DNA of 64,000 nt from the NCBI RefSeq assembly GCF_000971295.1, contig NZ_LANJ01000011.1, positions 62,001-126,000 on the forward strand. Direction: 5' to 3'. Under the pieces are notes generated by a model that had not been told where the DNA came from, ran no database searches, and saw only the letters and a list, made by a program, of their open reading frames with translations. This DNA is from Devosia epidermidihirudinis. GTDB taxonomy: Bacteria; Pseudomonadota; Alphaproteobacteria; Rhizobiales; Devosiaceae. This document shows, in pieces, positions 1 through 5,244 of this stretch. Each line of letters opens with the position of its first letter. Positions within the stretch are counted from its first letter, which is position 1. The translations under genes were made by a program, and so were the position numbers.

Positions 1-444
1 CATGTCATGACCGACGGCCCAGGGGAATTTCACGGGCTCGGGAATGTCGTCATAAGTGACGGCTTCGCCGCGCACCATGGCCTTCGTCTTGTCAATGAAC
101 TCGGCAACGCGGGCGAGTGTCGCCGGCTTCTTGCCCATGACTCGGCGTGAGCTGTCACCACGGCCCACGGCCAGATCGAAGCGGCCGCCGCTCTGCTTGG
201 AGAGGGAACCGAAAAGCGAGGCCGCGACGGACCAGTCGCGCACATCTGGATTGGTGACCAACGGGCCGAAGCGCATGTCGGTAGTGTGTTCCATACACAT
301 GGCAATGGCGGCGTAGCAATCGCGCCAAAGAATGTGCGAGTCATAGAACCAGCAATAGCTGAACCCGGCGTACTCGGCGGCGCGCACCAGATAGCGTGCC
401 CGCTCGGCCTCGATAAAACCTTTGAACGTGATGCCGAATTCCAT
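1..444 (-). CDS. LLM-family (luciferase-like) oxidoreductase, probably F420-dependent, 3' part outside window
   Basis: Partial gene: 148 codons are visible and the frame runs off the left edge. The start is the ATG at 444-442, preceded by a GGGAG/GAGGG ribosome site. The product begins MEFGITFKGF and continues through a region with W-F-Y-D-S-H, where luciferase-like TIM barrels bind flavin or F420, and a strand ending FDLAVGRGDSSRR. This layout fits the bacterial luciferase-like monooxygenase fold. The gene lies downstream of an F420 ligase, an F420-dependent dehydrogenase and a probable F420-0 transporter, and has the same operator type as the dehydrogenase gene. F420 is therefore the likely cofactor, but FMN cannot be excluded from this fragment. 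The substrate is unknown. Confidence 0.75.
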   Translation of the reverse strand, partial: MEFGITFKGFIEAERARYLVRAAEYAGFSYCWFYDSHILWRDCYAAIAMCMEHTTDMRFGPLVTNPDVRDWSVAASLFGSLSKQSGGRFDLAVGRGDSSRRVMGKKPATLARVAEFIDKTKAMVRGEAVTYDDIPEPVKFPWAVGHDM

Positions 445-463
445 TTTTTCCCTCGCTCCCTGT

Positions 464-490
464 CGATCAAATTTTGACCGTCCGATCAAA
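464..490. promoter_or_regulatory. Operator candidate upstream of the LLM oxidoreductase, same type as at 5227-5244
   Basis: TTTGACC at 473-479, a 4-base spacer, then GATCAAA at 484-490. This is the same 18-bp layout as the perfect TTTGACC-N4-GGTCAAA copy upstream of fgd, with one mismatch in the right arm. A further GATCAAA half-site lies immediately to the left (464-470). It sits about 30-45 bases upstream of the oxidoreductase start, a position suited to a repressor of the TetR or GntR kind. The cognate regulator is not in the window. Confidence 0.5.
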
Positions 491-533
491 TTTTTCGTCG
501 GAACCGGGGGAATGTCAATCGCAATTCGGCAGA

Positions 534-1319
534 TTATGCGGGCAGGTTATAGGCGATCATGGGTCGGCCCGATGTGGGGTGGCTCACCAGCGTCGCGTCG
601 ACATTATAGACCGTGCGGAGCAAGGCCGGGGTGAGCACATCCTGCGGAGCGCCCTGAGCAACCACGCGGCCCTGATGGAGCACGACGAGCGCGTCGCAAA
701 AGGCGGCGGCGAGATTGAGGTCATGCAGCGCGAGCAGCACCGTAGCGCCGGATTGGGCGCGCGTGCGGAGCAGGTTGAGCGCAGTGAGCTGGGCGTGGAC
801 GTCGAGGTGGTTGGTGGGTTCGTCAAGCAGCAGGAGGCGCGGTTGCTGGGCGAGGGCGCGGGCGATCTGCAGGCGCTGCTGTTCACCGCCGGACATGGTG
901 TTGTACTGACGGTGCTCGAAACCAGACATATCGACGGCGGCGATGGCCTCGGTGACAATCTGCTCGTCTTCGGGCGAAGGCTCCGCCTGCCATACGGATT
1001 GAAAGGGGATGCGGCCGAGCATGACGACTTCGCGCGCGGTGAGCTGGGCTTCGTTGGCGCCGATCTGCTCGACGAAGGCAGCGACGCGGGCGCGATTGCG
1101 GCGCGGCATGGCCGGGAGGTCGTTGCCCACAAAGGTGATGGTGCCCGAGGTGGTGGGCACAAGGCCGAGAGTGGCGCGAAGCAGCGTGGACTTACCGGCA
1201 CCGTTTGGGCCGATAAGACCGGTCAACGAACCGGGCAGGGCGCGCATGGTGACGCCATTGAGAATGCTCTCGCCACCGGCTGTGGCCGAGACGTCAGTGA
1301 TGTCGAGACCAGCGCTCAT
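534..1319 (-). CDS. ABC transporter ATPase of the proposed F420-0 uptake system (FecE/BtuD type)
   Basis: 261 residues, normal for a FecE/BtuD-type ATPase. The Walker A GPNGAGKST lies near residue 37, the signature MSGGEQQR near 144, Walker B LLLLDEPTNHLD just after it and the switch histidine in LALHD. It powers import through the permease encoded immediately upstream; its ATG overlaps the permease stop by 4 bases (ATGA). By sequence alone it could belong to a cobalamin, heme or siderophore system. The F420-0 assignment rests on the operon with cofE and fgd, matching the actinobacterial cassette described in TIGRFAMs (recalled from memory). It is the last gene of the operon before the separately started oxidoreductase. 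Confidence 0.8.
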   Translation of the reverse strand: MSAGLDITDVSATAGGESILNGVTMRALPGSLTGLIGPNGAGKSTLLRATLGLVPTTSGTITFVGNDLPAMPRRNRARVAAFVEQIGANEAQLTAREVVMLGRIPFQSVWQAEPSPEDEQIVTEAIAAVDMSGFEHRQYNTMSGGEQQRLQIARALAQQPRLLLLDEPTNHLDVHAQLTALNLLRTRAQSGATVLLALHDLNLAAAFCDALVVLHQGRVVAQGAPQDVLTPALLRTVYNVDATLVSHPTSGRPMIAYNLPA

Positions 1320-3302: not shown

Positions 3303-4139
3303 TTAGTCCTGACGCTGTTTGAGGCGGGTTTCCGGCTGGCCTGATGCCTCGCGCAGTTCGGCCAGCGCGGCATCGTAGCCAAGCCGATAGGCTTCAGCAG
3401 AGCCGAAGCGGAACATGTCGTCGTCGACGGACCGCACCAAAGTGCGCGCGCCGGGGGCGTTCAAATCGGTAACGAGGCGACCAAGCCCGCGCACAATGGC
3501 AACGGGAATGCCGCTGGCCTTGCCTTTGACCAGGTCAGCGGCACCGGAGAGCTCATCGGCCAGCACCGTGATGGTGACTTGCAGCGGCCTGCCATTGGCA
3601 TCAACACCACCGCGAAGATCATCGGTGACGACAATTCCGGCAGCGCCGATGGCCACATCGGTTTGGCCCACGCGCCACGGACGCCCCATGGTGTCGGTGA
3701 TGACCAGACCAACATTGAATCCAAGCCGATCGCGGAGACCCGCGCAGAGGTCTCGGGCGGACTTGTCCGGATCGAGGGGCAGGCGAAGGGCTACGCCATC
3801 CGGCACATTGCTGGTGTCGATCCCGGCGGCAGCCATGATCAGGCCGTGTCTCGTTTCGACAATCTGCGTCACGCCACCCGGATGAACCCGTTCGGCAACC
3901 ACGCGCACCGTGTCTTCGGCAATCGCCTTTTCGCGATCCGCCACGGGCACCTGCATGCCCTCGGCCTTGGACACGATCTTGCTGGTGACGATGAGAATGT
4001 CGCCGTCTTTGAGCGCACAGTCGGCATCTTCGGCGGCCTGAGCATCGATGGCCTCGACGATCATGGCGACGAGGTCATCGCCGGCGGCGATCTCCGGCAG
4101 GCCCGGAACACCCCAGACGCTATAGCGGGTAATAGGCAT
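3303..4139 (-). CDS. cofE: Coenzyme F420-0:L-glutamate ligase
   Basis: 278 residues, single-domain CofE length, so it lacks the nitroreductase-like second domain of mycobacterial FbiB. CofE uses GTP to add gamma-linked glutamates to F420-0, giving F420-1 and longer tails. Family features are the N-terminal PGLPEIAAGDDL, DGDILIVTSKIVSKAEG near residue 45, RVHPGGVTQIVETRHGLIMAAAGIDTSN near 85-115, and GLVITDTMGRPWRVGQTDVAIG near 145-165. The ATG at 4139 has a GAGGTG ribosome site. It sits between fgd and the transporter genes. No cofC, cofD or fbiC genes for making F420-0 are in the window, consistent with uptake of F420-0 followed by local tail addition. Confidence 0.92.
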   Translation of the reverse strand: MPITRYSVWGVPGLPEIAAGDDLVAMIVEAIDAQAAEDADCALKDGDILIVTSKIVSKAEGMQVPVADREKAIAEDTVRVVAERVHPGGVTQIVETRHGLIMAAAGIDTSNVPDGVALRLPLDPDKSARDLCAGLRDRLGFNVGLVITDTMGRPWRVGQTDVAIGAAGIVVTDDLRGGVDANGRPLQVTITVLADELSGAADLVKGKASGIPVAIVRGLGRLVTDLNAPGARTLVRSVDDDMFRFGSAEAYRLGYDAALAELREASGQPETRLKQRQD

Positions 4140-4165
4140 GTTTCACCTCGTTTTGGAGGAGAGCG

Positions 4166-5170
4166 TTACTGACCGCCAAGGGCACGCAGGCGGGGCAGAA
4201 TGTCTTTGGCGTAAAGATCGAGGAAACGGCTCTGATCGTCACCCGGCGCATGGAACACAAGATGGTCAAAGCCATAGTCCATGTATGCCTTGATCGCCCT
4301 GACGTGTTCATCGGGATCGCTTGAGACAATCCAGCGCTTGGCGATGCGCTCGATGGGGAGCTTGGCTGCCAGCTTCTCCATTTCCTCTGGATCTTCAACC
4401 GAATGCTTTTCTTCAGCACTCAGCGATAAAGCCGCCCAGCCACGTGTGTTTTCCAGCGCAGCGACCGGGTCTGGATCAAAGGATACCTTGACCTCTATCA
4501 TTCGCTCAAAGGGCTTGTCCTTCAGCTCGGACTCTGTCCGGCCGAGCGCCACATTGGGCAGCAAGGTATCGACGTAGAGCTCTTCGCCCTTGCCGGAGGT
4601 GCAGATGAAGCCATCGCCAGCGCGGCCGGCATATTTAGCGTTCAGCGGGCCAGCGCCCGCGATATAGATCGGCACCATCTCGTCGGGCTTGTCATAGATG
4701 GTGGCATTCTGGGTGTGGTAATACTCGCCATCGAAGGTGACGCGATCCTGGCTCCACAGTAGCCGGATCAGCTTGACCGCCTCGCGCAGGCGCGCGGACC
4801 GCTCCTTGAGCTCGGGCCAGACCATACCCGTGGACGGCACTTCATTGAGTGACTCGCCAGTGCCGACGCCCAAGATCAGTCGACCGGGGAACATGGCCCC
4901 GAGCGTGCCAAACGCGTGGGCGACAACGGAGGGATGAAGCCGAAAAGTCGGCGTGAGAACGGACGTGCCGAGAATGATACGGTCGGTGCGGGCCAGAACG
5001 GCAGCCATCCATGCTGGCGCGAAAGGGGCGTGGCCGTCAGTGTGTTTCCAAGGCTGGAAGTGGTCACTCACGAACACGGAATCAAAGCCGGCCTGTTCGG
5101 CCTCGACAGCGAAGTTCAGCAGTTTGGTGGGCGCGAATTGCTCCGCCGATGCCTTATAGCCAAAACGCAC
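4166..5170 (-). CDS. fgd: F420-dependent glucose-6-phosphate dehydrogenase
   Basis: 334 residues from the GTG at 5170, which has a strong GGGAGG site five to six bases away and gives the family N-terminus MRFGYKASAEQFAP. A TTG at 5194 would add eight residues and is less likely. FGD oxidises glucose 6-phosphate to 6-phosphogluconolactone and reduces F420. Compared with the Mycobacterium tuberculosis enzyme as I recall it, all named active-site residues are present: His and Trp in SDHFQPWKH, Glu in GVGTGESLNE, and the phosphate-binding Lys in TSGKGEELY, Lys in EEKHSVEDP and Arg in IAKRWIVSSDP. It is the first gene of the operon and would feed reduced F420 to enzymes such as the oxidoreductase at the left edge. 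Confidence 0.93.
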   Translation of the reverse strand: MRFGYKASAEQFAPTKLLNFAVEAEQAGFDSVFVSDHFQPWKHTDGHAPFAPAWMAAVLARTDRIILGTSVLTPTFRLHPSVVAHAFGTLGAMFPGRLILGVGTGESLNEVPSTGMVWPELKERSARLREAVKLIRLLWSQDRVTFDGEYYHTQNATIYDKPDEMVPIYIAGAGPLNAKYAGRAGDGFICTSGKGEELYVDTLLPNVALGRTESELKDKPFERMIEVKVSFDPDPVAALENTRGWAALSLSAEEKHSVEDPEEMEKLAAKLPIERIAKRWIVSSDPDEHVRAIKAYMDYGFDHLVFHAPGDDQSRFLDLYAKDILPRLRALGGQ

Positions 5171-5226
5171 TTGGTCCTCCCGATCCTCGTACAAGCAGCG
5201 TCCATCCTCACTGCCAATACAGATAC

Positions 5227-5244
5227 TTTGACCGGATGGTCAAA
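5227..5244. promoter_or_regulatory. Perfect operator TTTGACC-N4-GGTCAAA upstream of fgd
   Basis: Perfect 7-base arms with a GGAT spacer, centred about 65 bases upstream of the fgd GTG start, where a promoter for the F420 operon is expected. The same pattern with one mismatch precedes the LLM oxidoreductase gene at 473-490. This is likely the binding site of a dimeric regulator that controls both units. Confidence 0.6.

What the first reader, a model, noticed from the sequence alone, without database searches (positions are those of the whole stretch)
1..5244. Apparent coenzyme F420 salvage-and-use operon in an alphaproteobacterium
The order fgd, cofE, binding protein, FecCD permease, ATPase matches the cassette proposed for F420-0 import in a few actinobacteria that lack F420 biosynthesis, here with an extra LLM oxidoreductase. 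No genes for F420-0 synthesis are in the window. If the genome lacks them, this bacterium would live on scavenged F420-0, complete the tail with CofE and reduce it with FGD. The operon probably arrived by transfer.
Basis: partly seen in the sequence, partly recalled or inferred. Interest (0 to 1): 0.93.

Follow-up and report, generated by a model that had tools for sequence, protein, structure and literature searches.

The report
F420-scavenging operon across Devosia bacteria
Most Devosia genomes examined carry a conserved gene block with a predicted importer for a nearly finished form of the redox cofactor F420, beside enzymes that would likely complete, charge and spend it, while none of them shows cofD, a key gene for making F420, so these bacteria may depend on neighbours for the cofactor.

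Summary
Window 1-5170 (minus strand) is one operon: FGD, CofE, binding protein, FecCD permease, ATPase, and an LLM oxidoreductase that runs past the window edge. The genome (99.98% complete) has no detectable CofD, CofH or CofC. Of its 17 LLM proteins only the operon's two are of F420 type by best family. The genus is Devosia. In its family, binding protein, CofE and FGD (or an FGD-like enzyme) occur in the same 69 of 136 genomes; CofD in none. None of 384 other sampled Alphaproteobacteria has the binding protein. Best reading: import and use of scavenged F420-0. One result changes the picture: 30 of 37 actinobacterial carriers have CofD, 27 in the cassette itself, yet 36 of 37 lack a clear FO synthase, so their substrate is more likely FO. 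Relatives of the LLM (70%) end cofGHDCE-npdG operons in two alphaproteobacterial plasmids; actinobacterial ones sit beside dihydropyrimidinase, suggesting a pyrimidine reductase. Transport and substrates are untested.

The parts
4166..5170 (-). FGD, F420-dependent glucose-6-phosphate dehydrogenase (ORF open to 5194; GTG start at 5170 favoured)
   Evidence: TIGR03554 497.9 bits, cut-off 420; 454.6 bits to M. tuberculosis FGD1 3B4Y and 443.6 to 5LXE; 12 of 13 compared positions identical to 3B4Y (their roles recalled)
3303..4139 (-). CofE, F420-0:L-glutamate ligase, single domain
   Evidence: TIGR01916 220.9 bits, cut-off 180.65; aligns with CofE structures 7ULD, 2PHN, 2G9I; 55-60% identical to two actinobacterial CofE, 38-40% to two Rhodobacterales CofE
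2344..3297 (-). Substrate-binding protein, putative F420-0/deazaflavin importer; signal-peptide-like N-terminus without lipobox (read by eye)
   Evidence: TIGR03868 444.1 bits, cut-off 392.4; closest solved structure 4MLZ, 308.5 bits
1316..2347 (-). FecCD-type permease of the importer
   Evidence: TIGR03869 449.0 bits, cut-off 437.35; PF01032 301.6 bits
534..1319 (-). ATP-binding protein of the importer
   Evidence: best family TIGR03873 333.5 bits, under its cut-off 372.4
1..444 (-). LLM oxidoreductase, TIGR03842 family; runs off the window (whole gene G000:C3:61443-62444, 333 aa)
   Evidence: whole protein 481.2 bits, cut-off 295.45; 70% identical to the LLM that ends cofGHDCE-npdG operons on Leisingera and Paracoccus plasmids

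Best explanation
This Devosia chromosome carries an operon of FGD, CofE, an ABC importer and an LLM oxidoreductase but lacks detectable CofC, CofD and CofH, so the cell likely imports F420-0 released by neighbours, is predicted to add its glutamate tail with CofE, and would reduce it with FGD for use by the LLM enzyme. Steps: (1) F420-0 reaches the periplasm (inferred; no outer-membrane receptor was looked for). (2) The binding protein, permease and ATPase import it (predicted from family). (3) CofE adds glutamates, which would trap the cofactor in the cell (predicted). (4) FGD oxidises glucose-6-phosphate and makes F420H2 (predicted; recalled active-site residues intact). (5) The LLM spends F420H2 on an unsaturated substrate, possibly a pyrimidine base (weakest step). 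Compared with the alphaproteobacterial biosynthetic operon cofG-cofH-cofD-cofC-cofE-npdG-LLM, the synthesis genes are replaced by an importer and npdG by FGD, while CofE and the LLM remain as functions.
For: Family scores of the genes. No CofD, CofH or CofC at E<=1e-3 in the genome; the same models ring in 10, 11 and 6 of 14 control genomes (CofD and CofH partly through relatives such as YvcK and other radical-SAM enzymes). SBP, CofE and FGD/FGD-like sets are identical, 69 of 136 genomes, with CofD in 0 of 136. Gene company is kept: all 51 Devosiaceae loci examined have FGD or FGD-like, CofE, SBP and permease together, 49 the ATPase and 49 the LLM; three of these four gaps are at contig ends. 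Only the cassette's two LLM proteins of the genome's 17 are F420-type by best family. FGD residues equivalent to D39, H40, W44, E109, N112, T195 and K198 are kept (roles recalled). The two LLM relatives whose annotated neighbourhoods I read in Proteobacteria stand in complete F420 operons. FO is reported in the supernatant of a bacterial F420 producer (PMC11104420, passage), so a deazaflavin does leave cells.
Against: No transport or cofactor measurement exists that I found. The ATPase scores under its family cut-off. In most actinobacterial carriers the same transporter sits with CofD (27 of 37 loci) and often CofC (21 of 37), which points to FO rather than F420-0 as substrate there; and the SBPs show no clean charge switch between branches: Devosia-specific K150 and K204 are Pro and Asp in Arthrobacter too, which also lacks CofD. 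Co-occurrence of linked genes is partly one event, and in G121 the FGD lies on another contig than the SBP. Closer relatives of the LLM (82-86%, e.g. Mesorhizobium, Aquamicrobium) exist in bacteria whose F420 genes I could not check. npdG/Fno and F420H2-dependent FDOR enzymes were not searched in this genome. Extracellular F420-0, as opposed to FO, was not found documented in the passages read.
Confidence: 0.7

Rival explanations
1. The transporter imports FO, as predicted for the Cellulomonas-type cassettes, and unrecognised Devosia enzymes add the phospholactyl tail before CofE acts.
For: Same transporter family stands with CofD in 27 of 37 actinobacterial loci and CofC in 21, while only 1 of 38 carrier genomes shows a substantial FbiC-like match, 284 bits. 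FO is found outside producer cells (PMC11104420, passage).
Against: CofD is absent from all 136 family genomes and CofC from the window's genome. Devosiaceae and Arthrobacter, both without CofD, join in the permease tree with 92 support, though not in the concatenated tree.
Confidence: 0.12
2. The importer takes up tailed F420 (F420-1 and longer) from lysed cells and CofE only re-extends short tails.
For: CofE extends tails as well as starting them (recalled). One Devosia genome (G073) has a second cassette in which a peptide/nickel-type ABC transporter lies next to CofE and the importer.
Against: The family is named for F420-0; a FecCD-type pocket for long polyanionic tails is unsupported; not tested.
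Confidence: 0.1
3. The ABC genes import iron-siderophore, heme or cobalamin and merely share an operon with F420 genes.
For: Pfam domains are generic (PF01497, PF01032); some sources name the SBP 'iron complex transport system'.
Against: SBP 444.1 bits for TIGR03868 against 151.6 EitA, 26.8 IsdE, 18.7 BtuF. Transporter and CofE/FGD are present or absent together across 136 genomes and linked to F420 genes in two phyla.
Confidence: 0.06
4. The genome has a complete but unrecognised F420 pathway, or the assembly misses it.
For: The genome is in 47 contigs; only three biosynthetic families were searched there, and only CofD across the family.
Against: 99.98% completeness; CofD absent in 136 of 136 family genomes, 119 of them at least 90% complete with at most 5% contamination.
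Confidence: 0.05

Closest known systems
Putative F420-0 ABC transporter cassette of Actinobacteria (NCBIfam TIGR03868/TIGR03869/TIGR03873)
   Same: Same SBP and permease families above cut-off; transporter linked to CofE and to an F420-family LLM enzyme
   Different: Here in Gram-negative Alphaproteobacteria, in about half of a family; SBP without lipobox (read by eye); true FGD and a TIGR03842 LLM in the operon; no CofD, which 30 of 37 actinobacterial carriers have
Alphaproteobacterial F420 biosynthesis operon cofG-cofH-cofD-cofC-cofE-npdG-LLM (Leisingera caerulea, Paracoccus alcaliphilus plasmids)
   Same: Contains CofE, an F420-reducing enzyme, and a 70%-identical TIGR03842 LLM
   Different: Window genome has no CofH, CofD or CofC found; importer instead; FGD instead of npdG in the operon; CofE only 38-40% identical
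4MLZ, solved periplasmic binding protein
   Same: Closest solved structure to the SBP by sequence (308.5 bits)
   Different: Named only 'Periplasmic binding protein'; its organism (Jonesia denitrificans) is recalled and its ligand was not seen here
Mycobacterial and Rhodococcus FGD (3B4Y, 5LXE)
   Same: 454.6 and 443.6 bits over the whole length; recalled active-site residues kept
   Different: Those hosts make their own F420 (established knowledge)

Membership tests
Putative F420-0 importer (TIGR03868/03869/03873) | SBP above curated cut-off | tested here: met
   444.1 vs 392.4
Putative F420-0 importer (TIGR03868/03869/03873) | Permease above curated cut-off | tested here: met
   449.0 vs 437.35
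Putative F420-0 importer (TIGR03868/03869/03873) | ATPase above curated cut-off | tested here: inconclusive
   TIGR03873 is the best family but 333.5 vs 372.4
Putative F420-0 importer (TIGR03868/03869/03873) | Linked to CofE in a genome without earlier F420 biosynthesis (feature recalled from the family notes) | tested here: met
Putative F420-0 importer (TIGR03868/03869/03873) | Transports F420-0 | not testable with these tools
   no demonstration seen in the listings
F420-dependent glucose-6-phosphate dehydrogenase (TIGR03554) | Equivalog score and active-site residues | tested here: met
   497.9 vs 420; residues (roles recalled)
CofE (TIGR01916) | Equivalog score, full-length domain | tested here: met
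   220.9 vs 180.65, profile 2-244 of 244
F420 biosynthesis operon | CofD, CofC and CofH present | tested here: not met
Vitamin B12 or heme importer (BtuCDF, IsdE) | SBP scores as BtuF or IsdE | tested here: not met
   18.7 and 26.8 bits, far under cut-offs

The most novel reading that the evidence does not exclude
Deazaflavins are a shared vitamin: one transporter family has split into FO importers (with CofC, CofD, CofE; Cellulomonas type) and F420-0 importers (CofE only; Arthrobacter and Devosia), creating graded F420 auxotrophs in two phyla, and the scavenged cofactor powers a new F420H2-dependent uracil/thymine reductase (the TIGR03842 LLM) that stands in for dihydropyrimidine dehydrogenase in pyrimidine breakdown.
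Probability: 0.2. Interest if true: 0.92.

Novelty: new variant of a known kind. Interest (0 to 1): 0.75.

Why it matters
F420 is mostly treated as a cofactor that users make themselves. A bacterial genus that keeps importer, tail ligase, reducing enzyme and consumer while its whole family lacks CofD would show that F420 circulates between organisms like a B vitamin. Devosia species are culturable (general knowledge), so uptake, auxotrophy and tail building can be tested directly. The FO-versus-F420-0 split gives a built-in contrast for finding the transporter's ligand, and the LLM's gene company gives a testable substrate for an unassigned F420 enzyme family.

Tried and rejected
Considered and rejected: contamination (801-kb contig, flanking core-like genes, cassette in 69 family genomes); a recent single-strain acquisition; B12 or heme import; carriage of a close relative on known plasmids (96 records match the SBP, all under 60% identity, the 20 rows listed under 40%). 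Led nowhere: a charge switch in the SBP between FO-type and F420-0-type branches is not clean; Rfam on the operon found nothing; the promoter and terminator scan is near chance level; a Streptomyces plasmid hit for the LLM had no annotation. Direction of transfer: the permease tree puts Devosiaceae with Arthrobacter (92), the concatenated SBP+permease+ATPase tree leaves the Actinobacteria as one side of a branch with support about 60, so direction is not shown. Selengut and Haft 2010 and Ney et al. 2017 are not held, so what I say of them is recalled.
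Full report
WHAT IS THERE. On the minus strand of window 1-5170 six genes follow each other with operon-like spacing: FGD, CofE, a periplasmic binding protein, a FecCD permease, an ATPase and an LLM oxidoreductase. The LLM is cut by the window edge; the full gene passes TIGR03842 with 481.2 bits. Downstream lie a nucleoside hydrolase (its best families all under their cut-offs) and then a run that I read by eye as core genes (metG, tatD, tmk type). The window is G000:C3:62001-126000, on an 801,246-base contig.

NO PATHWAY TO F420-0. Searches of the whole genome with CofD (PF01933), CofH (TIGR03551) and CofC (PF01983) gave no match at E<=1e-3. 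CofD was then sought in all 136 held genomes of the family: 0 of 136, 119 of them at least 90% complete and at most 5% contaminated. CofH and CofC were not searched across the family.

FAMILY-WIDE CASSETTE. The SBP is over the cut-off in 66 of 136 genomes; three more (G050 390.3 bits, G051 387.5, G013 329.1 with a shortened match) fall under it. CofE is over its cut-off in 69 of 136, FGD in 62 of 136. In a script I compared the handles: the 69 SBP genomes (66+3), the 69 CofE genomes and the 69 with FGD or an FGD-like enzyme of 208-223 bits (62+7) are the same genomes. The 7 are in genus g15; the cassette context of six of them was read (G118 not). In G121, counted with FGD, the FGD is on another contig than the SBP. 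By genus code, 60 of 75 genomes of the window's genus, 8 of 13 of g15 and one of g5 carry the set. I fetched 60 neighbourhoods; 50 of them plus the window's own, 51 Devosiaceae loci, were used for gene company: all have FGD or FGD-like, CofE, SBP and permease; 49 the ATPase (L126 cut by the contig end, L154 none found); 49 the LLM (L122 and L126 cut). In four loci (L150, L151, L155, L157) the LLM lies on the FGD side instead. Left out of the 51 were eight loci with 34-40% identical SBPs without CofE (L142-L149), the duplicate region L159, and L112 (second cassette of G073). In a sample of 385 Alphaproteobacteria (own included) only the own genome has the SBP at E<=1e-60.

USERS OF F420. Of 17 LLM proteins in the genome, FGD and the cassette LLM are the only two whose best family is F420-type. 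Of the other 15, twelve pass the cut-off of a non-F420 LLM family and three (L004, L016, L017) are merely nearest to FMN-type families, under cut-off. Other F420-using families were not searched.

WHERE THE PARTS COME FROM. CofE is 55-60% identical to CofE of Arthrobacter and Cellulomonas but 38-40% to that of two Rhodobacterales. FGD matches Nocardia and Rhodococcus plasmid FGD at about 60-65%. The LLM is the reverse: 70% to Leisingera and Paracoccus, 44% to Cellulomonas. It is 70-86% identical to many proteobacterial proteins (a Rhizobiaceae MAG, Mesorhizobium, Aquamicrobium, Paraburkholderia, Halomonas and others), some closer than the Rhodobacterales ones, whose gene company I could not see. 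In Leisingera caerulea and Paracoccus alcaliphilus plasmids it is the last gene of cofG-cofH-cofD-cofC-cofE-npdG-LLM. So the Devosia operon looks like a mosaic. In g15 the first gene is a TIGR03557-family LLM (its top score, TIGR03885, is under cut-off), 76-78% identical to the one beside CofE in Arthrobacter and Cellulomonas, well above the 50-60% of the window's SBP to actinobacterial SBPs. Trees make Devosiaceae one clade (SBP 98, with G073's second copy inside; concatenated 99) but do not fix the direction of transfer.

THE ACTINOBACTERIAL PRECEDENT IS NOT UNIFORM. One search gave 52 loci; the 37 actinobacterial ones with 50-60% SBP identity were studied (L019-L055); the others are a Devosia MAG and 14 loci under 40%. 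PF01933 rings in 36 of 38 carrier genomes (37 plus the Devosia MAG), but this mixes YvcK and CofD: five sampled matches of the 230-256-bit class are YvcK (TIGR01826) and four of the 165-206-bit class are true CofD (TIGR01819), as is the one of L054. By similarity to the L054 CofD, CofD lies downstream of the ATPase in 27 of 37 loci and elsewhere in three more genomes (G143, G170, G171), so 30 of 37. CofC (TIGR03552, 150.5 bits for the one scanned, L037) is near it in 21 of 37 loci by similarity. CofH/FbiC gives matches at E<=1e-3 in 8 of 38 genomes, none over the cut-off; only one is substantial (G141, 283.9 bits in an 803-codon frame, FbiC-like), the rest at most 32.5 bits. Hence 29 of 37 actinobacterial carriers have CofD and no clear FO synthase: they would need FO, not F420-0. 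The four Arthrobacter show no CofD, like Devosia; neither do L024, L029 and L027 (the last a 1.9-Mb assembly). I therefore read the family as deazaflavin importers whose likely cargo follows from the enzymes kept.

WHAT THE LLM MAY DO. In 18 of 37 actinobacterial loci (27 have at least 7 kb upstream of the SBP) an LLM of the same family stands with a dihydropyrimidinase (TIGR02033, 530.5 bits in L054) and a carbamoyl-amidase-like protein next to the transporter. Among the ORFs annotated in that part of L054 no other oxidoreductase was seen, though two ORFs had no family match. Reduction of uracil's C5-C6 double bond is the missing first step of that pathway and suits F420H2 chemistry (established knowledge and inference). 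In Devosiaceae dihydropyrimidinase is near-universal, over cut-off in 123 of 136 genomes. In 20 neighbourhoods (11 cassette-plus, 9 cassette-minus) it lies in a conserved cluster with an amidohydrolase and an ABC transporter whose ATPase is 50% identical to the actinobacterial one in the two cases compared; I saw no PreT/PreA-like gene pair, but I annotated only part of the cluster by family and PreA was not searched genome-wide. Against: cassette-minus genomes have the same cluster, and the two LLM groups are only 44% identical. A nucleoside hydrolase homologue lies near the cassette in 18 of 52 Devosiaceae loci (the 51 plus L018), not independent events. I give the pyrimidine role about 0.25.

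LITERATURE. The passages read of the 2021 F420 review (PMC8498797) discuss F420 made by Alphaproteobacteria, with Fgd and Fno, and a putative exporter; no uptake system is mentioned in them (the word 'uptake' occurs 0 times in the main text). Phrase searches for F420 uptake, import, auxotrophy or an F420-0 transporter found no paper, nor did the family names; Devosia with F420 gave nine papers, by title mostly mycotoxin reviews (listing only). The library lacks most subscription papers. That the F420-0 importer idea was first made for a few actinobacteria is recalled (Selengut and Haft; TIGRFAM notes), and NCBI's names already carry it for Devosia proteins. PMC11104420 (passages) says FO is present in the supernatant of Mycetohabitans.

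VERDICT. A real, conserved operon whose genomic setting fits F420 salvage better than any rival; new in taxon and in composition, known in kind, untested in function.

Noticed in passing
L019-L055 (actinobacterial loci): 30 of 37 transporter carriers have true CofD (27 in the cassette, 21 loci with CofC) but only one has a substantial FbiC-like match: candidate FO auxotrophs.
   Followed up: yes
L233:3510-10002, L234:3587-10002: Leisingera and Paracoccus plasmids carry cofG-cofH-cofD-cofC-cofE-npdG-LLM; the LLM is 70% identical to the Devosia one.
   Followed up: yes
L054:4648-7956 and 17 similar loci: TIGR03842 LLM, dihydropyrimidinase and carbamoyl amidase beside the deazaflavin importer: possible F420H2-dependent pyrimidine reductase.
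   Followed up: partly
L112:1386-12311 (G073): Second, divergent CofE-SBP-permease-ATPase cassette beside a peptide/nickel-type ABC transporter and a 6-phosphogluconate dehydrogenase; a second FGD (504.5 bits) lies about 11.5 kb upstream of its CofE.
   Followed up: partly
L125:9895-10947, L131:5762-6784: Genus g15 has an LLM 76-78% identical to actinobacterial ones in the place of FGD, next to CofE.
   Followed up: partly
G000:C39:149443-150303 (L142): Second FecCD-type importer with a 37% identical SBP and no CofE in the region fetched; similar loci occur in g1, g13 and g15 genomes (L143-L149).
   Followed up: no
G081:C52:36875-37123: A 2.0-Mb genome of the same genus holds only a CofE-like fragment (35.5 bits) with an internal stop and no cassette SBP: possibly a decayed cassette.
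   Followed up: no
PDB 4MLZ: A solved but functionally unnamed binding protein belongs with this SBP family by sequence (308.5 bits); its density could be checked for a ligand.
   Followed up: no
L213:2374-13688 (G000:C8): Conserved dihydropyrimidinase cluster with ABC transporter in Devosiaceae, without an evident dihydropyrimidine dehydrogenase pair beside it.
   Followed up: partly
window 6902-7930: Protein with an ArsR/MarR-type winged-helix domain and a long C-terminal part without a Pfam match, close to an ORF (8069-9598) that reads by eye as an alpha-L-arabinofuranosidase.
   Followed up: no
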